From positions 1 to 21,497 of IMG/VR virus record IMGVR_UViG_3300007516_000184: 21,497 nucleotides of DNA. The stretch is one strand, 5' to 3'. The notes under the pieces are model-generated. The model was not told where the DNA came from, did no database searches, and was given only the letters and a program-made list of their open reading frames with translations. This stretch comes from a virus. A program made the translations under genes and the position numbers. Positions 3,593-19,962 of this stretch are shown here, piece after piece. Each line of letters begins with the position of its first letter. Position 1 is the stretch's first letter.

Positions 3593-4399
3593 ATGGATAT
3601 AAAAGCAATAAAAACCAAATTAGATTCTTTGAACAATCAATCTACTGGAGGTTATGATAAAAACCTATTTTGGAAACCTACTCCAGGGAAAGAGGTTATA
3701 AGAGTCGTTCCTTCAAAATTCAACCCTAAAATGCCTTTCAAAGAAATGAAATTTTACTATGGGATTGAAAGTAAAAAAGTAATGGCTTCTCCTTTAAATT
3801 GGGGAGATAAAGATCCTATTTTTGAATTCGCTAAATCTTTAAGAAATAGTAATGATAAAGAAAATTGGAGACTAGCTAAAAAACTGGATGCTAAAGTAAG
3901 AACTTTTGTCCCCGTAATCATAAGAGGAGAAGAAGATAAAGGAGTTAAATTATGGCAGTTTGGAAAAGAAATCTATGAAGCTTTTCTTACAATGGCTGTT
4001 GATGATGAAATAGGAGACTATACTGACATAGTAAATGGTAGGGATATCAAGTTAAACACTGTAGGTCCAGAAATAACGGGTACCACTTATAATAAAACCA
4101 CAATCTCACCATCCCTAAAAATGTCTCCTCTATCAGCTAAAAAAGAAGAAGTGGAAAAGTTCTTAGAAGAACAAACAGATCATTTGTCTGTATTTAAAGC
4201 TTACTCTTTTGACGAAATGAAAGCTTCTCTAGAAGAATGGTTACAACCTGATGAATATGATGATAGTGAATTAGTGACAGAAACAGCCCCCCCAACTAAT
4301 TATAATCTTAAAAAGAAATCCTCTGATTCCGAAAAATTCAATTCTTTATTTAAAGGAAATGATGTGGAGGGAACACCAGAAGATGATCTACCCTTTTAA
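3593..4399 (+). CDS. gp32-like single-stranded DNA-binding protein
   Basis: 268 aa. The N-terminal and central parts resemble the gp32-type OB-fold core of T4-like phages (KNLFWKPTPGKEVIRVVPSKF near residues 24-45, then a WQFGKEIYEAFL segment). Residues about 215-268 are acidic and low in complexity and end in EDDLPF, the kind of acidic hydrophobic tip that bacterial SSB uses to recruit partner proteins. No Cys/His zinc site like that of T4 gp32 is visible. It has its own promoter and lies 10 nt upstream of uvsX. In the cell it should coat ssDNA at the phage replication fork and in recombination. The family is assigned from sequence pattern and position; the fold is not verified. Confidence 0.75.
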   Translation: MDIKAIKTKLDSLNNQSTGGYDKNLFWKPTPGKEVIRVVPSKFNPKMPFKEMKFYYGIESKKVMASPLNWGDKDPIFEFAKSLRNSNDKENWRLAKKLDAKVRTFVPVIIRGEEDKGVKLWQFGKEIYEAFLTMAVDDEIGDYTDIVNGRDIKLNTVGPEITGTTYNKTTISPSLKMSPLSAKKEEVEKFLEEQTDHLSVFKAYSFDEMKASLEEWLQPDEYDDSELVTETAPPTNYNLKKKSSDSEKFNSLFKGNDVEGTPEDDLPF

Positions 4400-10284: not shown

Positions 10285-10701
10285 ATGGACAATTTCGATT
10301 TAAAAAAATACTTAGTGGAAGGAAAGCTATTAAAAGAAGACAAAAGTGCAACTATTTTAAGTAATCAAATCTTGGATTTTTTAGAATCAAATAAAGTAAT
10401 TACATCTAATGATGCTCAAAGGATACATAAAGAGCTTACTAAATTTTTAGAAGACAAGAATAATATTAAACAACCTGATAATGTAGGAGGTTCTGCGTTA
10501 ACTGAAATAGATTATGATGGGGTTTTAGATTTAAGAGGAGAAAAAAGAGAATTAGAAGATGAAATTGAACAGCTGTTCATTGATATGGAGCAGGAAGCTG
10601 AACCCGAAGGAGGAGAAATAGCTAATAGATATGGTAACGAATTAAATGATTTAGAAGCTCGTTTATATAAGTTCAAAAACAACTGGATCATTACGATATG
10701 A
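10285..10701 (+). CDS. Tagged cassette protein 1 (possible internal head protein)
   Basis: 138 aa. Residues 1-18 are the shared tag MDNFDLKKYLVEGKLLKE. The rest (19-138) is a highly charged, mainly helical payload. It has one segment at about 25-60 (LSNQILDFLESNKVITSNDAQ and following residues) and a second, acidic coiled-coil-like part at about 85-135. DNA coding for residues 38 to about 60 is repeated exactly at 12156-12225. The A-rich leader directly before the ATG is the same as in copies 3 and 4. There is no signal peptide or membrane segment. Function is unknown. The tag contains L-V-E and L-K-E, which fit the L/I-x-E sites of T4-type prohead proteases, so packaging into the head followed by tag removal is a reasonable inference. 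Confidence 0.7.
   Translation: MDNFDLKKYLVEGKLLKEDKSATILSNQILDFLESNKVITSNDAQRIHKELTKFLEDKNNIKQPDNVGGSALTEIDYDGVLDLRGEKRELEDEIEQLFIDMEQEAEPEGGEIANRYGNELNDLEARLYKFKNNWIITI
10397..10466 (+). repeat. 70-bp direct repeat, copy A (inside tagged gene 1)
   Basis: Seventy bases identical to 12156-12225. Here they encode part of the payload of cassette protein 1 (ITSNDAQRIHKELTKFLEDK and following residues). Confidence 0.9.
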
Positions 10702-10736
10702 ATGAATCTAAATCCACAAATTAAAACAAAAATAAA

Positions 10737-11429
10737 ATGAACAATTTCGATTTAAAAAAGTATTTAGCTGAAGGTAGGCTATTAAAAGAAAATGCACCGG
10801 GATACGACACCCGAAAACAAGGTGAAGCTTTACCAACATTAGAAAATGTTAAAGCAGCTTACGAAGCTAAAAACAAAATTAAAGAAAACATAGATGATTA
10901 CATTGTAGATCAAAATTCTAAATATCTTACTGATCAGATTGAGGATGATATGATGAATAGTGAATTTGAAAGTAAAGAAGATATTAACCTATTTATAGAT
11001 AGCATCATTGAGGGGGTTAACAAATTAAGAGATAAAAAACTTAAAGAGTTCGGTGGTGATAAGTCAGATGATTTCATCAACCCTGGAAATACCATTGGAC
11101 GAGATAAAGAAAGAGATGAAGAATTTCTTAATATAAAAGAAGATAGTGGAGACATTGAAAAATTAAAAGCTGCATATAAAGAATTATATCTTAAATACCC
11201 AAATAATGCTAAAAGGGCAGGATTTGAACATAAGAGTTTTTTAGATAATGATCGATATGAAGAATTATATTTCCATTCAGATTGGCCTAGAGAATTTAGA
11301 CATGAAGATGAATATGATGGTATGGCCCACAAATACCAACAAATCATAAGAGATGTTGAAGATTGGGAGGGGGAAGTAGACAAATTGTTTACTAAGTTTA
11401 ATGTTCCTTTTAACTCACATGCCGGTTAA
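10737..11429 (+). CDS. Tagged cassette protein 2 (possible internal head protein)
   Basis: 230 aa, the longest member. It begins with the most diverged tag (MNNFDLKKYLAEGRLLKE), in which the L-x-E sites are kept (L-A-E, L-K-E). The payload starts APGYDTRKQGEALPTLENVK and is rich in Glu, Lys and Asp, with predicted helical stretches at about 35-125 and 138-225. The YHS-like aromatic patch at about 175-190 is not a motif I recognise. No catalytic motif is evident. It is separated from gene 1 by 35 nt and from gene 3 by 17 nt, with no promoter box between, so the set is probably one transcript. The minus-strand open frame opposite it is a compositional shadow. Confidence 0.7.
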   Translation: MNNFDLKKYLAEGRLLKENAPGYDTRKQGEALPTLENVKAAYEAKNKIKENIDDYIVDQNSKYLTDQIEDDMMNSEFESKEDINLFIDSIIEGVNKLRDKKLKEFGGDKSDDFINPGNTIGRDKERDEEFLNIKEDSGDIEKLKAAYKELYLKYPNNAKRAGFEHKSFLDNDRYEELYFHSDWPREFRHEDEYDGMAHKYQQIIRDVEDWEGEVDKLFTKFNVPFNSHAG

Positions 11430-11446
11430 AAATAAAATAAAATAAA

Positions 11447-11731
11447 ATGGACAATTTCGATTTAAAAAAGTACTTAGTAGAAGGGAAGCTATTAAAAGAG
11501 GAAAACAAACCAGAACCTAAATTCAAAATTGGTGATAAAGTTACAACAACACCCCAATCAGGTCTAGGTAAAGGTTTTAAGGGTATTATTTGGGATGTTT
11601 ACATGAATGAACCTGAAAATCTAGAAATAAAAGATGGTGAGTATGTTTATGTTGTTGAACATGATAATTATAGAGGAAATATGGTAATGAGTTATAGAGT
11701 AAAAGAATCAGATTTAATAAATATAGTATAA
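11447..11731 (+). CDS. Tagged cassette protein 3 with SH3-like small beta domain
   Basis: 94 aa. After the tag and a short linker (ENKPEP), the payload of about 70 residues begins KFKIGDKVTTTPQ, followed by GKGFKGIIWDVY and ends YRVKESDLINIV. This order of beta strands (a KVGDKV opening, a G-rich turn, a terminal V...DL.. strand) is typical of small SH3/KOW-like barrels, which bind nucleic acid or peptides. The fold is inferred from pattern only. The payload is unrelated to those of its neighbours. Lying only 10 nt before gene 4, it is cotranscribed with it. Confidence 0.68.
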   Translation: MDNFDLKKYLVEGKLLKEENKPEPKFKIGDKVTTTPQSGLGKGFKGIIWDVYMNEPENLEIKDGEYVYVVEHDNYRGNMVMSYRVKESDLINIV

Positions 11732-11741
11732 ATAAAATAAA

Positions 11742-12158
11742 ATGGACAATTTCGATTTAAAAAAGTACTTAGTGGAAGGAAAGCTATTAAAAGAAAATAT
11801 GGATCTTGAAATCTACGACCAATCCGTAGAATTAACAGCTGATTCTGGTGATTATAATGGTGAAATAAAAGATGGTAAAGTATCATTTTCAGTAGTATAT
11901 GATGATGAAGATGATAGAGATGGAATGGAATTTGATGAAGATAACTGGAAAGATATATTAGGTCTAGATCATGCATTCACAAAAATATCAAGTCAAATAC
12001 CTACTGAAGTTGAAGCATTAGGTGATTATGTTATGATTACCGTAGATTTAGAAGATCTTAAAGGAATGATTGGTAGGGAAAATGAGGATTTTAAAGATTC
12101 AGAAGAGGGTGAATATCAAGCTTCATTAGATAGACTTAGAACAATTGATAGGCCTTAA
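11742..12158 (+). CDS. Tagged cassette protein 4, strongly acidic
   Basis: 138 aa. The tag is identical in protein to copies 1 and 3. The payload starts MDLEIYDQSVELTADSGDYN and is very acidic (DDEDDRDGMEFDEDNW near residues 65-80), with alternating beta-type segments and a helical C-terminus. Such acidity is common in DNA-mimic or scaffold-like phage proteins, but I see no family motif. The TAA stop (12156-12158) is made from the first bases of the 70-bp repeat, so the present C-terminus was probably set by a recombination event. Confidence 0.68.
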   Translation: MDNFDLKKYLVEGKLLKENMDLEIYDQSVELTADSGDYNGEIKDGKVSFSVVYDDEDDRDGMEFDEDNWKDILGLDHAFTKISSQIPTEVEALGDYVMITVDLEDLKGMIGRENEDFKDSEEGEYQASLDRLRTIDRP

Positions 12159-12225
12159 TTACATCTAATGATGCTCAAAGGATACATAAAGAGCTTACTA
12201 AATTTTTAGAAGACAAGAATAATAT
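12156..12225 (+). repeat. 70-bp direct repeat, copy B
   Basis: Perfect copy of 10397-10466, located at the 3' end of tagged gene 4 and beyond. Confidence 0.9.
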
Positions 12226-12301: not shown

Positions 12302-12568
12302 ATGGAAGAACTAAACACATTTAGAAAATATTTAAATGAGAACCAAAATCAATTTCAAGTTGTTTTTTATGGTAATGGTGAAGAGGCTAAGTACTCCCAA
12401 ATCTTTAATTCTAAAAGGGAATCTATATCGTTTGCTAATGGACAAGAATGGGATGAACAAGTAGAAGTATATAAAGATGGAGATTATAGATATGAAACCA
12501 AATATCATTATCATAACCCAGAGGATGAGGAAAATTATAATGAATATGAAATAATAGAGTTAAGCTAA
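12302..12568 (+). CDS. Small acidic protein with a divergent tag-like N-terminus
   Basis: 88 aa. The start MEELNTFRKYLNEN resembles the cassette tag in the core pattern F-x-K/R-K-Y-L-x-E and also holds an L-x-E site. The rest (QFQVVFYGNGEEAKYSQIF, then GDYRYETKYHYHNPEDEENY) is rich in Tyr, Glu and Asp and probably a small beta-sheet domain. It lies after the relic, 143 nt from tagged gene 4, and ends just before a terminator. It may be an older member of the same set. No function is assigned. Confidence 0.62.
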   Translation: MEELNTFRKYLNENQNQFQVVFYGNGEEAKYSQIFNSKRESISFANGQEWDEQVEVYKDGDYRYETKYHYHNPEDEENYNEYEIIELS

Positions 12569-13102: not shown

Positions 13103-13579
13103 ATGCCTATAAATTTCGGAAGACCTATAAATCGTATAGTACTTCATTGTACCGCTACTTCCCAAAAGGCTACAGTAGATAGTATCATAAACTATTGGTC
13201 TAAGGTTCTAAAATGGAAGCATGTAGGATATCATTATATAATAGGAGTAAATGGGGAAAGACATATCTTATCTAATTTAAAATCCCCAACAAATGGGGTT
13301 AAAAATTATAATTGGGATTCAGTTCATATTTCATATATAGGGGGGGCTAGAGGAGATGATAGAACTGACGCTCAAAAAGCAGAATTAGAAAATCTTCTTT
13401 TAGAATTGGTTTCACCAGATATTTTAGGTATATTACCTGTTGTAGGTCATAGGGATTTATCCCCAGACCTAGATAGAAACGGAATTATAACCCCAAATGA
13501 ATGGGTTAAGTTATGTCCTTCATTTGATGTTAATAAATGGTTAAAGGAAATTAATTTTTATAACAAGATAATAAAATGA
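13103..13579 (+). CDS. N-acetylmuramoyl-L-alanine amidase (T7 lysozyme-like endolysin)
   Basis: 158 aa Amidase_2 family enzyme that cuts the MurNAc-L-alanine bond of peptidoglycan. Zinc ligands are in place: His15 (LHCTAT), His116 (GHRDLSPD) and Cys138 (KLCPSFDV). Lys136 lies two residues before the cysteine, matching Lys128/Cys130 of T7 lysozyme, and a tyrosine pair (GYHY, 42-45) matches the T7 Tyr46 region. The length is close to T7 lysozyme (151 aa). There is no signal peptide, so release through a holin is expected, fitting the preceding membrane gene. It overlaps the next gene by 4 nt (ATGA). Confidence 0.9.
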   Translation: MPINFGRPINRIVLHCTATSQKATVDSIINYWSKVLKWKHVGYHYIIGVNGERHILSNLKSPTNGVKNYNWDSVHISYIGGARGDDRTDAQKAELENLLLELVSPDILGILPVVGHRDLSPDLDRNGIITPNEWVKLCPSFDVNKWLKEINFYNKIIK

Positions 13580-13968
13580 CAAGTAATAATTGGTATTATA
13601 AAATACCCATTGAAATACGGTTAATAATTATAGGGATTATAATCTTTACAGGATGGTCATATTTATCTCCCAAACCTCAATCCTCAAAACTTCAAGACCA
13701 AATCCAAGAACTGAATAATCAGATAGAAATAAATTCTAAATGGATATATGAAGTTGATAGTATATTAAAAACTTCAGAGGATTTATCTATTTCTGTCAAA
13801 GACCAAAACTCCGAAATACAATCTTCAATTAAACAAACTCAAAAGAAAAGAAATGACATTCTTAAGAAAGATATTAATAACATTGGTTCTTATTCTGATA
13901 GGGAACGTGACGCTCTTTGGGCAAAAATCTCAACTTCTCCCAACTACACCCTTACCCCAAAGGAATGA
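13576..13968 (+). CDS. Membrane-anchored coiled-coil protein, i-spanin-like
   Basis: 130 aa. One N-terminal membrane segment (about residues 11-29, IEIRLIIIGIIIFTGWSYL) is followed by a long polar helical region (about 38-105) with heptad-like spacing (LQDQIQELNNQIEI). This topology, together with translational coupling to the amidase, is that of an inner-membrane spanin (Rz-like) that fuses inner and outer membranes in the last lysis step. The last 116 bp are also read in another frame by the following gene, as in many Rz/Rz1 pairs. The spanin role is inferred from architecture; sequence families of spanins are highly diverse. Confidence 0.62.
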   Translation: MTSNNWYYKIPIEIRLIIIGIIIFTGWSYLSPKPQSSKLQDQIQELNNQIEINSKWIYEVDSILKTSEDLSISVKDQNSEIQSSIKQTQKKRNDILKKDINNIGSYSDRERDALWAKISTSPNYTLTPKE

Positions 13969-14395
13969 TACTATAGGGGCTATAGTAATAAATTACTACC
14001 CTATAGATTATTCTCTCATGCCAGAAAGAATTACCTTAAATGGACGGAAGATGGTTGTCTTTACCCCCCTTCAAGAAGAACAACTTTTGATAAACCAAGG
14101 ATATTCTGAATATTACAAAGGAAGTTTATTAGAATTTGTAGAAGCTAACAGTAAAAATATAGCCCTTATAGATACCCTCTTAGGTAATACTGAAGTATTA
14201 GAAAATTATTTACTATATGGTTCTAAATATCTTAAGAACACTCAATCGGGGTGGGTTAAAGGAATAGAACTTGCCGAAAAATTTGACAAGAAAAACAAAA
14301 ACAAAAATATAACCATAGTTCTCATAGGAACAGGAAGTTTCCTAGTAGGAACTTATTGTGGTATTAAAATATACCAATTAATACAAACCCCATAA
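13853..14395 (+). CDS. Exported protein with C-terminal membrane anchor, overlapping spanin-like partner
   Basis: 180 aa. The N-terminus MTFLRKILITLVLILIGNVT followed by LFGQK is a convincing signal peptide, and a second membrane segment lies at about 152-174 (ITIVLIGTGSFLVGTYCGIK). Between them is a soluble domain of about 120 residues. The first 39 codons lie inside the preceding gene in a different frame. A signal sequence is unlikely to arise by chance in an alternative frame, so I accept this start. No lipobox cysteine is present, so it is not a typical lipoprotein o-spanin. An N-terminal export signal plus C-terminal anchor resembles a u-spanin arrangement. The stop and the next start share a base (TAATG). 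Confidence 0.62.
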   Translation: MTFLRKILITLVLILIGNVTLFGQKSQLLPTTPLPQRNDTIGAIVINYYPIDYSLMPERITLNGRKMVVFTPLQEEQLLINQGYSEYYKGSLLEFVEANSKNIALIDTLLGNTEVLENYLLYGSKYLKNTQSGWVKGIELAEKFDKKNKNKNITIVLIGTGSFLVGTYCGIKIYQLIQTP

Positions 14396-15775: not shown

Positions 15776-16343
15776 TAATTTTGAACTAATAGAACCATTA
15801 CTTAATTTTTCGGATGTTAACGATTTCTATATAATTGAACTTATTCAGAGAAGGAAGGAAAATCCTTCAATCTCAAGAAATCTGAATATTATCAAGAAAT
15901 ACAATATAACTTCACTTGAGAAATTGAAGGAATGTATGGAAGAAATCATCATATTTTGTAATGTTTCAAATTGTAGAGCCTATATAAGACTCAACAGAAG
16001 AAACTTCAAGGATTTATCCCTAGAGGTTATGGTTAAAACAACAGAACTAATAAGAGATGGTCAATACAAAGCTCTTAGGAAAGTCCATGACAAAGTTGCA
16101 GGCAACCATCATTCAGAGAAGGTTAGAAAATGGATAGTTGATATTGATGAACCTGCTGATGTATTGAGAGCATCCACAATCATAGAGTATATCGAAACAC
16201 TTGGTGGTGAAGTCTATGTTGAAATACCATCATTAAACGGCATCCATATAATAACCTCTCCATTTAGGGTAGATTATTTCAAAAAAACATACCCCGATAT
16301 TGAGATTCATAAAGACAACCCAACAAATTTATACATACCATGA
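15768..16343 (+). CDS. Conserved phage protein, possible primase-polymerase-like fold
   Basis: 191 aa. An N-terminal helical part (DFYIIELIQRRKENP, about 19-33) leads to a core with RAYIRLNRR (about 70-78), then KWIVDID (about 121-127), EIPSLNGIHIITSPF (about 151-165) and a C-terminal DNPTNLYIP. The hhhDhD element followed by a Gly-x-His hydrophobic strand recalls archaeo-eukaryotic primases (D-x-D, then a catalytic His), but the match is short. Similar short proteins are widespread in large phages without known function. It overlaps the transglycosylase gene by 4 nt (ATGA). Primase-like is a hypothesis only. Confidence 0.6.
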   Translation: MTNNFELIEPLLNFSDVNDFYIIELIQRRKENPSISRNLNIIKKYNITSLEKLKECMEEIIIFCNVSNCRAYIRLNRRNFKDLSLEVMVKTTELIRDGQYKALRKVHDKVAGNHHSEKVRKWIVDIDEPADVLRASTIIEYIETLGGEVYVEIPSLNGIHIITSPFRVDYFKKTYPDIEIHKDNPTNLYIP

Positions 16344-17125
16344 AAATATCCCATGAAGTTCCAAGATGCCTCCTTGAAGAAAGCAAAAAATTTAATGACT
16401 ATCAATATGCTTTAGTCCATCTCTTAGAAAAAGATAAGGAATATGAACAACATTTCCTCCAATGTAAAGAAGAAGGAATCCCTATATATTTAGATAATAG
16501 TCTACACGAGTTAGGAACAGCGGTAGGGGGAGATATTTTATTGAAATGGATAGAAAAACTAAAACCAGAACATGTTTTTGTTCCTGATGTATGGGGAAAC
16601 GCTAATGAGACTCTAAAAAATGCTTTAGAATGGAGCAGAAAAGCCTACCCTGTAGAAACAACTCCTATAGCTATAATTCAAGCCAATACTTTAAATGAGG
16701 CTGAGATTTGTTACCAAGAATATAAAAAAGTGGGATATGAGAAAATAGCATTCCCTTATGGTAGTTCTTATTATAACAGTCTATTTCCTCATGCTAATAG
16801 ATCGATAGGAGGGGTTTTAGGGAGAAATTATCTTCTTAATAGGTTGTATTTAAATGGTACTATAAAAAAAGGAGATAGGATTCACCTTTTAGGAACATAT
16901 TGTGCTTTTGAATTTGGTTTATATAGGGGTGTTGAATATAATATTGAAAGTATAGATACTTCCAACCCTATTATGGCTTCCATAGAGGGATTAATTTATG
17001 GTCCTATGGGTTTATTTAAAAAACCTTTATCTAATTTAAACCTAAGTTTTGAAATTGATAAAAATGATATTAATTTACCATTATTATATCATAATATAGA
17101 TCTTTTTAAACAAATAATAAGATGA
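16340..17125 (+). CDS. dpdA: TGT/DpdA-like 7-deazaguanine transglycosylase
   Basis: 261 aa, TIM-barrel-like protein resembling phage DpdA, which exchanges guanine in DNA for a 7-deazaguanine base. Supporting patterns: IPIYLDNSLHELG (48-59), HVFVPDVWGNANETL (78-92, Asp83), PIAIIQANTLNEAEICY (109-125), IAFPYGSS (136-143), GDRIHLLGTYC (178-188) and YNIESIDTSNPIMAS (200-214). Asp206 in the last is a candidate nucleophile by position near the barrel's C-terminal strands. The clear QueC homologue three genes downstream in the same operon supports this reading. It is shorter than bacterial tRNA TGT (about 375 aa) and lacks the zinc site of tRNA enzymes, as expected for phage forms. Confidence 0.65.
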   Translation: MKISHEVPRCLLEESKKFNDYQYALVHLLEKDKEYEQHFLQCKEEGIPIYLDNSLHELGTAVGGDILLKWIEKLKPEHVFVPDVWGNANETLKNALEWSRKAYPVETTPIAIIQANTLNEAEICYQEYKKVGYEKIAFPYGSSYYNSLFPHANRSIGGVLGRNYLLNRLYLNGTIKKGDRIHLLGTYCAFEFGLYRGVEYNIESIDTSNPIMASIEGLIYGPMGLFKKPLSNLNLSFEIDKNDINLPLLYHNIDLFKQIIR

Positions 17126-17313: not shown

Positions 17314-17498
17314 ATACTGAAAATTTATGGTGGGGTTATATTCATAAAAATGGTAGTATACAAACCAAAAGATACCTTGACAAAAGAGACTTAGAAGAGG
17401 CTTATGAATCTCCTTTTGTTTGGAGAGTTATAGAACCCTTCCTATCTAAAGATAGGGAAGAGGCTTTAGAAATAATTTCAAACAAATCCAAAATATGA
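17310..17498 (+). CDS. Small hypothetical phage protein (WWGYIHKNGSIQ type)
   Basis: 62 aa, ATGA overlaps on both sides. It begins MNTENLWWGYIHKNGSIQTK, continues RYLDKRDLEEAYESPFV and ends with a REEALEII helix. The pattern W-G-Y-I-H-x-N-G-S-I-Q followed by a DL.EAYESPFV helix is one I associate with conserved small phage proteins of unknown function. Possibly a compact alpha/beta binding domain. Confidence 0.58.
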   Translation: MNTENLWWGYIHKNGSIQTKRYLDKRDLEEAYESPFVWRVIEPFLSKDREEALEIISNKSKI

Positions 17499-18379
17499 AA
17501 AAGAAAAATGTAGTACTTTCACTCTCCGGAGGGATGGATTCTAGCACCTTGTTACTTAGATGTTTAAATGAATATGAAAATATAGTTTGTGTTTCATTTG
17601 ACTATGGTCAAAAACATAAAGAGGAATTAAATAAAGCTAGGGAACTAGTAGAATATTTAAATTTGAATCCTCATAGGAGTTTTATTACACCTTCAAAAGT
17701 AACAATCAACTATCCTCAAACTAAACATCGTGTAATAGAATTAAAAGGCCTATCCGAACTTTTGGTTAGTGGGTTAATAGAAGGAGGAACAGAAGTACCA
17801 GAAGGTCATTATGAACAGTCTAACATGAAAGAAACTGTTGTTCCTAACCGAAATAAATTATTCTCATCTATAATACAATCTATAGCTTTATCCATAGCTA
17901 ATGAAACGGAAGAATGTTGTGATATAGCAATGGGGATCCATGCTGGAGATTTTAATATATACCCAGACTGTAGACCTGAATTCAGAGATGCAGACCAAAA
18001 AGCTTTCAGATTAGGAAACTGGAATTGGGAAAACGTAAAATATTTTACCCCTTATCTTGAAGGGATGAAAATAGATATCTTAAAGGATGGTGTTAGGTTA
18101 TGTGAAGAATTAGGTTTAAAATTCAAAGAAATTTATAAAAGAACTATAACCTCTTATAAACTAATAACAATAGAAGGGAAAGTTTATAGTGACTATAAAT
18201 CCGCTTCTAGTGTCGAGAGGATTGAAGCTTTTATAAAATTAGATAAAAAAGACCCAACACTTTATGCCGACCAAAATGGACCGGTTAAATGGGAAACTGC
18301 AAAGAACCATGTGATGGAAGTTCTTAAGAACCACCTTCAAGAAAAAACTTTTAAAATGTTTAAAAAAATATATGAGTAA
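17495..18379 (+). CDS. queC: QueC-like 7-cyano-7-deazaguanine (preQ0) synthase lacking zinc cysteines
   Basis: 294 aa. The PP-loop ATPase motif LSLSGGMDSSTLL (8-20), SFDYGQKHKEEL (34-45), VVPNRN (115-120) and GIHAGDFNIYPDCRPEF (147-163) identify a QueC enzyme, which converts 7-carboxy-7-deazaguanine to preQ0 using ATP and ammonia. Bacterial QueC is about 230 aa and ends with four cysteines that bind zinc. Here the matching region (about 219-246, TSYKLITIEGKVYSDYKSAS followed by SVERIEAF) keeps the frame of the motif but has no cysteine at all, and an extra C-terminal stretch of about 45 residues follows. preQ0 is the precursor used by DpdA-type DNA modification. FolE, QueD and QueE are not in the window and may lie elsewhere or come from the host. 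Confidence 0.85.
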   Translation: MKKKNVVLSLSGGMDSSTLLLRCLNEYENIVCVSFDYGQKHKEELNKARELVEYLNLNPHRSFITPSKVTINYPQTKHRVIELKGLSELLVSGLIEGGTEVPEGHYEQSNMKETVVPNRNKLFSSIIQSIALSIANETEECCDIAMGIHAGDFNIYPDCRPEFRDADQKAFRLGNWNWENVKYFTPYLEGMKIDILKDGVRLCEELGLKFKEIYKRTITSYKLITIEGKVYSDYKSASSVERIEAFIKLDKKDPTLYADQNGPVKWETAKNHVMEVLKNHLQEKTFKMFKKIYE

Positions 18380-18704
18380 GATTAACATCAAACCTTCTAA
18401 TGACCCTCTAAAAGGTTCTGTTCCTTCACCATCTCCAACTAAAAAATCAGATCTATCTCTAAAACCTATAAATCTTCATACTTATGAGGTGGTTTATGAA
18501 AACAGAAAAACCCTTTGTGAGTTTGTAATGGATGTTGATGGGTTCTATTATGCGAGGGGCTTAAATAGTGGTTATTGGACTGAACATAACTTGCTATTAG
18601 TAGCAAATGAGTTAACTCGTATAAATAGACCTTGGAATGAAAAGATTAGAAAGGAGTTTGATAAAAAGATGAAAAATGAACCTGAAATTTTTAAAGGATT
18701 TTGA
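18372..18704 (+). CDS. Hypothetical protein between queC and thyA
   Basis: 110 aa, starting inside the last 8 nt of queC and ending at a TTGA overlap with thyA. Residues 1-35 are a disordered Pro/Ser/Lys linker (NDPLKGSVPSPSPTKKSD). Residues about 36-110 form a small mixed domain (YEVVYENRKTLCEFVMDVDG, then GYWTEHNLLLVANELTRINR). No recognised family. Confidence 0.58.
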   Translation: MSKINIKPSNDPLKGSVPSPSPTKKSDLSLKPINLHTYEVVYENRKTLCEFVMDVDGFYYARGLNSGYWTEHNLLLVANELTRINRPWNEKIRKEFDKKMKNEPEIFKGF

Positions 18705-19333
18705 ATAAACTAGACAAACAATATCTAGATTTAGTAGAACATATTCTATTGAATGGTTACGATAAATCAGATAGGACGGGGACCGGAACTTCCAGCATAT
18801 TTGGTATGCATATAACACATAACATGAAAGATGGATTTCCTATACTTACAACAAAGGAAATCAATTTTGAGAACATTGTATCAGAACTTATTTGGTTTTT
18901 GAGAGGTGACACGAACATTAAATACTTGGTGGAGAATGGGAATAATATTTGGGTGGGGAATTGCTTCTCTAATTATCTAAAGGATGGTAAACCACTTACT
19001 AGAAAAGAATTTATACATGAGATAAAAACTAATATCGAATTCGCAAAGAAGTGGGGGGAACTAGGTCCCATATATGGTAAACAATGGAGGAATTGGAATA
19101 TACGTTTTGACACAAACCATCCTGCCATTCAAAATAAAGCGTATTCCCTTACAATAAAGGATTCAATAGATCAGATCTCCGACATAATACACGAACTAAG
19201 AACCAATCCAGATTCTCGTAGGATGTTAGTATCGGCATGGAACCCCGCGGATTTACCCGTAACAGATAATAGAACATCTGATGAACTTTATCAAATATAT
19301 TTAAAAGATTTTACCCAATCAAAAAAGCAATAA
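18701..19333 (+). CDS. thyA: Thymidylate synthase, N-terminal part (split gene)
   Basis: 210 aa from a TTG start that overlaps the preceding stop (TTGA). Residues 1-186 are ThyA: DRTGTGT with phosphate-binding Arg25, LTTKEINF (49-56), ELIWFLRGDTN (62-72), GPIYGKQWR (122-130) and SRRMLVSAWNPADLP (172-186). Homology then stops: residues 187-210 (VTDNRTSDELYQIYLKDFTQ, then SKKQ) are not ThyA, and the frame ends before the catalytic Pro-Cys-His. The remaining half is the next ORF, in another frame. By itself this half cannot be catalytic. Confidence 0.85.
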   Translation: MNKLDKQYLDLVEHILLNGYDKSDRTGTGTSSIFGMHITHNMKDGFPILTTKEINFENIVSELIWFLRGDTNIKYLVENGNNIWVGNCFSNYLKDGKPLTRKEFIHEIKTNIEFAKKWGELGPIYGKQWRNWNIRFDTNHPAIQNKAYSLTIKDSIDQISDIIHELRTNPDSRRMLVSAWNPADLPVTDNRTSDELYQIYLKDFTQSKKQ

Positions 19334-19446
19334 ATTTTAAAAATATAAAATATATGAAGCCTTTAAATAAAGAAGCATTCTTAAAAGAATTAAAATGTAA
19401 TATTAAATTTAACAAAAGGTATGGATTAAAAAATATAACTGAAGGT
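19259..19446 (+). other. Extra segment splitting thyA (about 188 bp)
   Basis: If ThyA is read directly from Pro186 of the first part (codon ending 19258) to Lys32 of the second part (codon starting 19447), it gives DLPKQVLPPCHYG, a normal ThyA sequence. The 188 bases between are not a multiple of three and contain stops. The exact borders are uncertain by several bases. I see no intron core that can be assigned by eye. Confidence 0.55.
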
Positions 19447-19962
19447 AAGCAAGTATTACCACCATGCCATTATGGATTTCAAGTTTATACAAGAAAATTG
19501 TCTATGGGTGAGCGAAGAAATTGGTGCCTACAAAACAATGTCATTTTAGAACATTTAGAAGCTGGTTTAGAGAATGAAGAAGACGATATGAGAGCTAACC
19601 GTGTCCCAACAAGAGCAATCTCCTTAATATGGAATCAAAGATCAGTTGATGTTGGGTTGGGTTTACCCTATAACATAGCTTCATATGGTTTATTATTATC
19701 AATAATTGCAAAAGAAGTTAATATGGTCCCTGATATGTTGGTTGGCAGTTTAGGAGATACTCATATCTATAACAATCATAAAGATGGACTTAAAGAACAA
19801 TTAACTAGGGAACCATACGATTTACCAACACTTGTTATAAATGATGAATTCTGGAACCCAGATAGAAAAGGAGTTGAATTTATTAATAACCTAGAAATAA
19901 GCGATTTTTACCTAAACGGATATGAAAACCATCCAAACATAAAACTGAAACTAAGTAATTGA
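19354..19962 (+). CDS. thyA: Thymidylate synthase, C-terminal catalytic part (split gene)
   Basis: 202 aa. From about residue 32 it is phage-type ThyA: LPPCHYGFQVYTRKLS with catalytic Cys38, WNQRSVDVGLGLPYNIASYG (about 103-122), GDTHIYNNH (about 148-156) and a normal C-terminal NGYENHPNIKLKLSN. Residues 2-24 (KPLNKEAFLKELKCNIKFNK, then RYG) match residues 97-119 of the first half at 11 of 23 positions without gaps, so the leader may descend from another thyA copy. An AT-rich leader before the ATG makes independent translation plausible. Whether the halves reassociate into an active enzyme is unknown. Confidence 0.82.
   Translation: MKPLNKEAFLKELKCNIKFNKRYGLKNITEGKQVLPPCHYGFQVYTRKLSMGERRNWCLQNNVILEHLEAGLENEEDDMRANRVPTRAISLIWNQRSVDVGLGLPYNIASYGLLLSIIAKEVNMVPDMLVGSLGDTHIYNNHKDGLKEQLTREPYDLPTLVINDEFWNPDRKGVEFINNLEISDFYLNGYENHPNIKLKLSN

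What the first reader, a model, noticed from the sequence alone, without database searches (positions are those of the whole stretch)
10285..12158. Cassette of four proteins with one shared N-terminal tag and unrelated payloads: possible modular head-targeting system
Seen: four consecutive genes begin with nearly the same 18 residues (MDNFDLKKYLVEGKLLKE or close variants), also conserved in DNA (1 to 6 differences in 54 bp), and then diverge completely: a helical charged payload, a 212-residue charged payload, an SH3-like barrel and a very acidic domain. Known: T4 internal proteins IPI-III and Alt carry a short N-terminal capsid-targeting sequence cleaved by prohead protease gp21 after L/I-x-E; IPI then blocks a host restriction enzyme after injection. 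Inferred: this tag, with L-V-E at 10-12 and L-K-E at 16-18, has the right size, position and sites to be such a signal, making the cassette a set of co-packaged, possibly injected effectors to which new payloads can be attached. I know of no described system for this tag.
Basis: partly seen in the sequence, partly recalled or inferred. Interest (0 to 1): 0.9.

Follow-up and report, generated by a model that had tools for sequence, protein, structure and literature searches.

The report
Phage capsid-cargo tag with swappable payloads
A T4-like phage, probably of flavobacteria, carries a row of unrelated small proteins that share one short front tag; the tag looks like a removable shipping label for loading proteins into the virus head, and relatives attach the same label to well over a hundred different cargoes.

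Summary
Four consecutive genes (10285-12158) share an 18-residue N-terminal tag and then have unrelated payloads. It is not the start of one domain: related viral contigs gave 263 complete tagged proteins in 129 payload families. A near-identical 142-kb contig encodes a gp21-type prohead protease and T4-type head genes.

The tag has two hydrophobic-x-E sites, resembling the published T4 gp21 motif (L/I-X-E). The second is kept in 88.9% of 252 distinct N-termini (32% shuffled, 15% in payload stretches) although its spacing varies. The tag is swapped for other N-terminal modules before the same payload, and all 33 such N-termini have an [LI]xE at the boundary (10.7 expected). Payloads occur fused head to tail, with a site at 16 of 20 junctions. 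A cultured Flavobacterium phage, immuto, carries the tag or a close variant on four genes.

Best reading: a capsid-targeting and processing signal working like that of T4 internal proteins, with unrelated, mostly acidic cargo. Packaging, cleavage and injection are inferred; no virion data were found.

The parts
10285..10701 (+). tagged gene 1 (138 aa; tag 1-18, payload pI 4.40). The C-terminal half of its payload also occurs behind another N-terminal module (MRKSELKSFIKEN..TLTE) in L060
10285..10338 (+). tag of gene 1: MDNFDLKKYLVEGKLLKE, candidate cleavage sites after L-V-E (residue 12) and L-K-E (residue 18)
10737..11429 (+). tagged gene 2 (230 aa; tag MNNFDLKKYLAEGRLLKE, payload pI 4.72)
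10737..10790 (+). tag of gene 2
11447..11731 (+). tagged gene 3 (94 aa; strand-rich payload, also found behind the MKELNAFRKYL module in L285 and L286)
11447..11500 (+). tag of gene 3
11742..12158 (+). tagged gene 4 (138 aa; payload pI 4.05, folded core modelled from residue 20 on; also behind other modules in L351 and L355)
11742..11795 (+). tag of gene 4, modelled with low confidence and outside the folded core
12302..12568 (+). fifth small ORF, MEELNTFRKYLNEN...: its start resembles the alternative module seen in L285, L286 and L355 (11 of the first 13 residues equal to L286, a weak match, E 0.09); possible further cassette member
12156..12225 (+). 70-bp exact copy of an internal piece of gene 1 (10397-10466), a trace of recombination at the end of the cassette
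13103..13579 (+). N-acetylmuramoyl-L-alanine amidase (likely endolysin) downstream of the cassette
   Evidence: PF01510 E 1.5e-11
16340..17125 (+). homologue of the gene annotated DpdA (DNA 7-deazaguanine insertion) in phage immuto; placed by mapping the hit in the near-identical contig to window coordinates; no Pfam match of its own at E 0.01
17495..18379 (+). QueC, 7-deazaguanine precursor synthesis
   Evidence: PF06508 E 4e-37
3593..4399 (+). T4 gp32-like single-strand binding protein, context
   Evidence: PF08804 E 4e-13

Best explanation
The shared N-terminus is a capsid-targeting and processing propeptide of a T4-like phage lineage. During head assembly the tag (hydrophobic residues F4, L6, Y9, L10) binds the prohead core. 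The gp21-type protease then cuts after the hydrophobic-x-E sites (L-V/A-E at 10-12 and L-x-E near 14-24), freeing the payload inside the maturing head. The payloads then enter the next host with the DNA, where at least some act against host defences. Shown here: conservation of the tag and its sites, payload diversity, exchange of the tag for other modules, poly-payload fusions that keep the sites, and a gp21-type protease, scaffold-like protein and capsid protein in the same genome. Inferred: binding, cleavage, packaging, injection and anti-defence function. The confidence given is for targeting and processing; injection on its own I put at about 0.55, and the first rival below shares the targeting step.
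For: Tag on 263 complete proteins in 129 payload families at E<1e-6 (118 at E<1e-3); synonymous codons vary within it. Second [LIM]xE within 16 residues after the YLxE motif in 88.9% of 252 distinct N-termini, against 31.9% shuffled and 14.7% of 1678 payload 16-mers; spacing bimodal (offsets 4-5 and 10-11); E of YLxE in 241 of 252. In 96 distinct N-termini outside the peptide used for the first scan: E in 90, second site in 85. Same payload behind other N-terminal modules: 33 homologues in 12 payload families; [LI]xE up to two residues into the homology in 33 (10.7 expected from 2011 other ORFs with matched stretches), strictly before it in 29 (9.3 expected). Internal payload junctions: 16 of 20 with a site, background 13.8% of 3177 8-mers in the same proteins. 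gp21-type protease in 9 of 20 records and 10 of 16 further records, in 9 of the 11 of 100 kb or more, including the contig nearly identical to the window; motifs GEL[DN]HP and G[VI]SSRG shared with T4 gp21. Five scaffold-like proteins have 3.6-5.2 [LI]xE per 100 residues against a gene median of 1.5 in G021 and 1.1 in immuto. T4 ipII and ipIII start MKTYQEFIAE, with the same aromatic-aliphatic-x-E pattern as YLAE; ipI differs (MKTFKEFTSTTTPVSTITE). Gene 4 model: folded core starts at residue 20, tag outside it. Cultured Flavobacterium phage immuto carries the tag or a close variant on four genes, three of them by the strict DNA pattern.
Against: No virion proteomics for any tagged phage was found, so packaging and cleavage are unproven. 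Payloads are mostly acidic (median pI 4.57 over 129 families), whereas mature T4 internal proteins are basic (pI 9.0-9.7). The T4 determinants (residues 4 and 7) are spaced differently from F4 and Y9. The tagged proteins were found with patterns and expressions that fix most of residues 1-10, so conservation there is partly built in. Related tags share ancestry, so the site counts and P-values overstate independence. 28 of 252 N-termini lack a second [LIM]xE within 16 residues (26 within 24), and 4 of 20 junctions lack a site. Against shuffled composition the scaffold excess of sites reaches 0.05 in only 2 of 5 lineage scaffolds. One 102-kb tagged record (G007) shows none of gp21, gp23, gp32 or sheath. 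No payload could be tied to an anti-defence function.
Confidence: 0.78

Rival explanations
1. The tag brings proteins into the prohead core and is cleaved, but the payloads act in head morphogenesis (as core or scaffold helpers) and are degraded or remain in the head; they are not injected effectors. This shares the targeting step with the best explanation.
For: T4 IPIII mutants show slower head assembly (PMC9026906, passage). Some tagged genes lie a few kb or less upstream of the terminase-portal-protease-capsid cluster (G012; immuto gp076 and gp077). Payloads are acidic, unlike the basic T4 internal proteins.
Against: Payloads are extremely variable (129 families), which fits arms-race cargo better than a structural role; head genes themselves are conserved enough to be found by one Pfam model each.
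Confidence: 0.27
2. The conserved stretch is mainly a DNA-level element: a translation start or recombination anchor through which new genes are added to the cassette, with no role for the peptide.
For: Tag DNA is more alike within a locus than between loci (3.66 against 4.65 differences per 36 nt; 0 of 300 label shuffles reach this). The upstream 15 nt are also more alike within a locus (5.5 against 6.8). A 70-bp copy of gene 1 lies at the end of the cassette.
Against: Synonymous codons vary at each tag position examined other than Met1 (residues 2-12 in 168 proteins chosen for having the same peptide up to residue 10). Replacement modules have other peptide sequences but carry an x-E site at the boundary. 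Internal copies keep the L-x-E part. Recombination through the tag may still be how the cassette grows.
Confidence: 0.05
3. The tag is a localisation or docking signal with another target (membrane, host protein, replisome) unrelated to the head.
For: A short hydrophobic-charged N-terminal stretch could serve many targets. The window cassette lies between replication and lysis genes, not in the head operon.
Against: An [LI]xE at the payload boundary in the exchanged modules, and a site at most fused-payload junctions, points to the head protease specifically. T4 ipII and ipIII likewise lie beside the lysozyme gene rather than in the head operon.
Confidence: 0.1
4. An ordinary paralogous family whose C-termini evolved fast.
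For: Genes lie in tandem (69 of 90 neighbouring tagged pairs lie within 150 nt) and tags are similar.
Against: Payloads of the same family occur behind different N-terminal modules with the homology starting near the end of the module, which is module exchange, not divergence.
Confidence: 0.02

Closest known systems
T4 internal proteins IPI, IPII, IPIII and their capsid targeting sequence (CTS)
   Same: Short N-terminal propeptide shared by proteins with unrelated mature parts; hydrophobic-x-E site at its end; gp21-type protease and T4-type head genes in the genome; genes in small clusters, one near a lysis gene; modified phage DNA likely (DpdA homologue and QueC here).
   Different: No clear sequence similarity of the tag beyond aromatic-aliphatic-x-E; two tandem sites with a variable spacer; mostly acidic, not basic, cargo; many more payload families (129 here; at least 10 Ips reported in T-even phages, passage); exchange among about four module types; poly-payload proteins.
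N-terminal propeptides of SPN3US and phiKZ head proteins
   Same: Identical N-termini on diverged proteins (gp53 and gp54) with protease motifs; multiple sites in a propeptide (PMC5694885, passages).
   Different: Several of those propeptides exceed 100 residues and the motif is A-x-E or S/A-x-E; those phages are giant phages of another lineage.
Polyvalent proteins of phages and conjugative elements
   Same: Several effector parts in one injected polypeptide (PMC5512222, abstract and passages).
   Different: Those are multidomain proteins with recognisable enzyme domains and sometimes their own peptidase; here the units are small orphans separated by head-protease-like sites and also occur singly.

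Membership tests
T4-type internal proteins with CTS | short shared N-terminal propeptide before unrelated mature regions | tested here: met
   263 complete tagged proteins, 129 payload families; that the stretch is a propeptide is inferred
T4-type internal proteins with CTS | gp21 cleavage motif L/I-x-E at the end of the propeptide | tested here: met
   [LI]xE in 87.3% and [LIM]xE in 88.9% of 252 N-termini, against 28.7% and 31.9% shuffled; T4 motif from PMC9026906
T4-type internal proteins with CTS | gp21-type prohead protease in the same genome | tested here: met
   absent from the 21-kb window record itself but present in the near-identical 142-kb contig G021, E 2e-28
T4-type internal proteins with CTS | T4-type scaffold, portal and gp23 capsid protein | tested here: met
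   gp23 by Pfam, E 2e-73; portal, terminase and scaffold in G021 named only by position and resemblance to the annotated immuto operon
T4-type internal proteins with CTS | targeting residues as in T4 (positions 4 and 7 of MKTYQEF) | tested here: inconclusive
   the tag has F4 and Y9, not an aromatic at 7; the invariance of F4 in 129 representatives is built in, since my search expression requires F
T4-type internal proteins with CTS | basic mature proteins | tested here: not met
   median payload pI 4.57, window payloads 4.05-5.05; T4 IPs 9.0-9.7. For this reason filed as a new variant that works like the T4 system, not as a T4 internal protein
T4-type internal proteins with CTS | present and cleaved in virions | not testable with these tools
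   no proteomics for immuto or relatives found (search listings; passages of PMC7077304, which does not mention immuto)
T4-type internal proteins with CTS | injected; inhibits a modification-dependent restriction enzyme | not testable with these tools
   only circumstantial: DpdA homologue and QueC in the window
Polyvalent proteins | several recognisable enzymatic domains in one injected polypeptide | tested here: not met
   Pfam matches in at most 2 of 129 payload representatives at E 1e-3, both to domains of unknown function

The most novel reading that the evidence does not exclude
A general cargo code in T4-like phages of Bacteroidota. About four different N-terminal modules (FDLKKYLxE..LxE; MKKSELxxxIKEEI..LxE; MIKLxDILxE; MKELxxFRKYLxEGxIKE) are interchangeable loading labels. 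Some phages chain several effectors into one precursor (L116: 436 aa with four junctions carrying a site), which the head protease cuts into separate injected proteins inside the capsid: a phage polyprotein of effectors.
Probability: 0.5. Interest if true: 0.87.

Novelty: new variant of a known kind. Interest (0 to 1): 0.78.

Why it matters
If right, the tag gives a simple sequence handle for finding injected phage effectors: in the loci fetched here it already marks 129 payload families, almost all without any database match. It would extend the T4 internal-protein principle from enterobacterial phages to aquatic phages, with interchangeable labels and chained cargoes. The question is directly testable because a cultured phage (immuto on Flavobacterium sp. 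LMO8) carries the tag.

Tried and rejected
The tag as the start of one conserved domain: rejected. A T4-like late promoter (TATAAATA) before the genes: no excess, 7 matches in the window against 9.0 expected; one lies before gene 4. Finding the tag in named phages by tblastn of gene 3: nothing usable, best E 7. Fold search of the gene 4 model in the PDB: no match at E<=0.001. Defence library scan: two REase_II models at E 2e-4 and 4e-4, one of 129 members each, treated as weak. The strict tag pattern is absent from Microcystis phage Mel-JY01, Rhodothermus phage RM378, uncultured phage LR756508 and Synechococcus phage Sf-FR1; T4 has one match and one in the reversed control. The genome-contig scan gave one locus, from a MAG. 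My recollection that cyanophages carry the 'CPLATQD' payload was not borne out (7 records each, no cyanophage). Virion proteomics for relatives: passages of PMC7077304 (which has no mention of immuto) gave none, and the listing for immuto names showed no phage paper (10 of 187 listed). Repoila 1994 is not held; it is known here only through citations.

Limits of the counts. N-terminal position and conservation of residues 1-10 are therefore partly built in. Less biased checks: the in-frame distance from the previous stop (0-44 residues in 208 of 209 tagged ORFs, one of 203; the four window genes were entered as 0 by hand and are left out here); the any-position search in fetched loci (256 of 260 with a Met within 7 residues upstream; of the other four, two are internal, L162 and L030, and two lie near an ORF start); scans of seven tagged contigs at any position after a Met (18 of 18 matches within 8 residues of the previous stop); and E12 and the second site in N-termini outside the seed peptide. 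Loci overlap and only identical proteins were collapsed, so close relatives are counted more than once. The gp21 tests cover 36 records that I chose, mostly the longer ones. In one search hits were restricted to homology starting near the payload start, and its site count reached six residues into the homology and allowed Met1 as first residue; one search repeats it with matched stretches and without Met1. Two of the 33 (L266, L245) are merely variants of the same tag. In one search hits below 50% identity or starting late were dropped before counting, near-identical junctions were collapsed, and one of the four negatives (L394) is the L409 junction shifted by four residues. Two further internal copies keep the whole tag (L162, L030) and are not among the 20. 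In one search the capsid and scaffold genes of immuto were not picked up by the motifs used.
Full report
WHAT IS THERE. Four consecutive + strand ORFs (10285-10701, 10737-11429, 11447-11731, 11742-12158) begin with the same 18 residues or a close variant and then diverge. The tag DNA differs at 1-7 of 54 positions between pairs. Payload lengths are 120, 212, 76 and 120 residues with pI 4.05-5.05. A fifth small ORF at 12302 begins MEELNTFRKYLNEN, which resembles another module (11 of 13 residues, E 0.09). A 70-bp exact copy of part of gene 1 lies just after gene 4, a sign of rearrangement in the cassette.

WHICH PHAGE. The window is a 21.5-kb viral record. It matches the 142-kb contig IMGVR_UViG_3300027976_000007 (handle G021) over its whole length at 99.89% and 99.94% in two pieces. 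Gene order in the window (polymerase A, gp32-like, recombinase, exonuclease, DnaB, ribonucleotide reductase) follows that at the start of Flavobacterium phage immuto, although the reductase is of another kind. Immuto is also the closest named match of a capsid protein from one of the tagged contigs (G012; 58.7% identity). I therefore infer a T4-like phage of a Bacteroidota host.

PROTEASE AND HEAD GENES. The window record has no gp21-type protease. G021 has one (E 2e-28) and a gp23-type capsid protein (E 2e-73), with scaffold-like, portal-like and terminase-like genes alongside (named by resemblance to the immuto operon). In the 36 tagged records that I tested, PF03420 is present in 9 of 20 and 10 of 16, and in 9 of the 11 of 100 kb or more. 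Of the two large ones without it, G010 has a gp32-like gene and G007 shows none of the four hallmarks tested. The proteases share GEL[DN]HP and G[VI]SSRG with T4 gp21, and most have an L-I-E near their own N-terminus as T4 gp21 does (that these motifs hold the catalytic His and Ser is recalled). Scaffold-like proteins of five contigs carry 3.6-5.2 [LI]xE per 100 residues, T4 gp22 5.95, and genes of 150 aa or more a median of 1.5 in G021 and 1.1 in immuto; against shuffled composition P is 0.099, 0.004, 0.202, 0.051 and 0.023 for the five.

THE TAG IS A MODULE. A pattern scan of IMG/VR stopped at its limit with 119 stretches, and four relative searches added more. Together these, the whole-contig pieces, immuto and the window gave 266 complete tagged proteins, counting identical ones once; the 263 with payloads long enough to compare fall into 118 families at E<1e-3 or 129 at E<1e-6 by single linkage. 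Of 129 representatives, at most 2 match Pfam, at most 4 PHROGs and at most 2 the defence library at E 1e-3. Synonymous codons vary at each of residues 2-12, so it is not one conserved DNA string; conservation of residues 1-10 themselves is partly built in by the way the proteins were found. Tags are more alike within a locus than between loci, which fits copying of the tag within a genome. Neighbouring tagged genes are usually adjacent (69 of 90 pairs within 150 nt).

THE CLEAVAGE-LIKE SITES. The published T4 gp21 motif is L/I-X-E, and the T4 propeptides of 10-19 residues target proteins to the core (PMC9026906, passages read). T4 ipII and ipIII, read directly, begin MKTYQEFIAE; ipI begins MKTFKEFTSTTTPVSTITE. 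In this tag the E of YLxE, which the search expression did not require, occurs in 241 of 252 distinct N-termini. A second [LIM]xE follows within 16 residues in 88.9%, against 31.9% in shuffles and 14.7% of 1678 payload 16-mers. Its distance is bimodal (offsets 4-5 or 10-11), so two different spacers end in the same motif. In 96 distinct N-termini outside the peptide of the first scan the figures are 90 and 85. A model of gene 4 from 12 sequences (mean pLDDT 74.4) places the folded core from residue 20, just after L-K-E at 16-18, with the tag itself at low confidence.

MODULE EXCHANGE. Searching payloads against all ORFs held found 33 homologues in 12 payload families in which the tag is absent, or in 2 cases a variant of it, with homology starting near the end of the N-terminal module. 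With stretches matched in length and Met1 not counted, [LI]xE up to two residues into the homology is found in 33 of 33 (10.7 expected from 2011 other ORFs) and strictly before the homology in 29 of 33 (9.3 expected); the first holds for all 12 families. The replacement modules, grouped by eye, are of three main kinds: MKKSELxxxIKEEI..., MIKLxDILxE and its like, and MKELxxFRKYLxEG. For the window itself, gene 3 and gene 4 payloads occur behind other modules (L285, L286; L351, L355). The C-terminal half of the gene 1 payload occurs behind MRKSELKSFIKEN (L060). For gene 2 only a variant of the same tag was found (L266, L245).

CHAINED PAYLOADS. Some tagged proteins contain a second payload that elsewhere stands alone behind its own tag. 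Of 20 distinct junctions, 16 keep [LIMVF]xE at the boundary (background 13.8%; binomial 5e-11 if junctions were independent, which they are only in part), while the FDLKKYL part is kept in 0 of the 20; two internal copies outside that set keep it (L162, L030). The clearest case is L116:6200-7507 (436 aa) with ENKLLKE, AEGKLLKE, EEGKLLKE and SEGKLFEE at its junctions. Keeping the cut site while losing the targeting part is what one expects if one label suffices for loading and the protease then separates the units.

FUNCTION. T4 Ip1, Ip2 and Ip3 are injected and each blocks a different GmrSD type IV enzyme (PMC12373910, passages read). The window carries QueC and a DpdA homologue, and 8 of 9 large tagged records have a DpdA homologue (in G026 only a 43-residue match at the contig end). 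A modified genome plus co-packaged inhibitors is therefore plausible, but no payload has been tied to a target. The acidic character of the payloads (median pI 4.57; G021 ORFs of 150 aa or more, 5.90) differs from the basic T4 proteins.

VERDICT. It works like the T4 capsid-targeting system with good confidence. It is filed as a new variant because a typical T4 trait (basic cargo) is not met and because module exchange and chained payloads go beyond what I found described. Searches for the tag letters (none), for capsid targeting with Bacteroidetes or flavobacterial phages (12 of 76 listed), for shared N-termini with modular effectors (12 of 21 listed) and for internal proteins with polyproteins (8 of 9 listed) showed no description of this tag in the listings of the open-access library; subscription papers were not searchable.

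Noticed in passing
18701-19333 and 19354-19962: Thymidylate synthase appears split into two ORFs in different frames; the Pfam match covers only the first half of the profile in the first ORF.
   Followed up: no
13576-13968 and 13853-14395: Two overlapping ORFs after the amidase, with a hydrophobic start each, arranged as in Rz/Rz1-type spanins (resemblance recalled, not tested).
   Followed up: no
44-2200: A 718-aa protein with DUF285 repeats (E 4e-75) at the window start, possibly a surface or tail-associated repeat protein.
   Followed up: no
L011:9729-10163: A recurrent tagged payload rich in cysteines, with homologues annotated 'high potential iron-sulfur protein' in other phage records: a possible Fe-S protein in a capsid.
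   Followed up: partly
NC_055915.1:117631-118632: Immuto gp077, annotated cob(I)alamin adenosyltransferase, starts MADNFNLRSFLTENKLTKNAQLLKEG, a variant of the tag, so an annotated enzyme may be a tagged cargo; gp076 next to it is tagged too, directly before the terminase.
   Followed up: partly
G007 (IMGVR_UViG_3300032291_003205): A 102-kb tagged record with no gp21, gp23, gp32 or sheath match; whether it is a fragment or another phage type is unknown.
   Followed up: partly
G011 (IMGVR_UViG_3300032296_003307): A 268-kb tagged record with two gp21-type proteases and at least two gp23-type capsid genes: a chimera, a concatenation or a phage with duplicated head genes.
   Followed up: no
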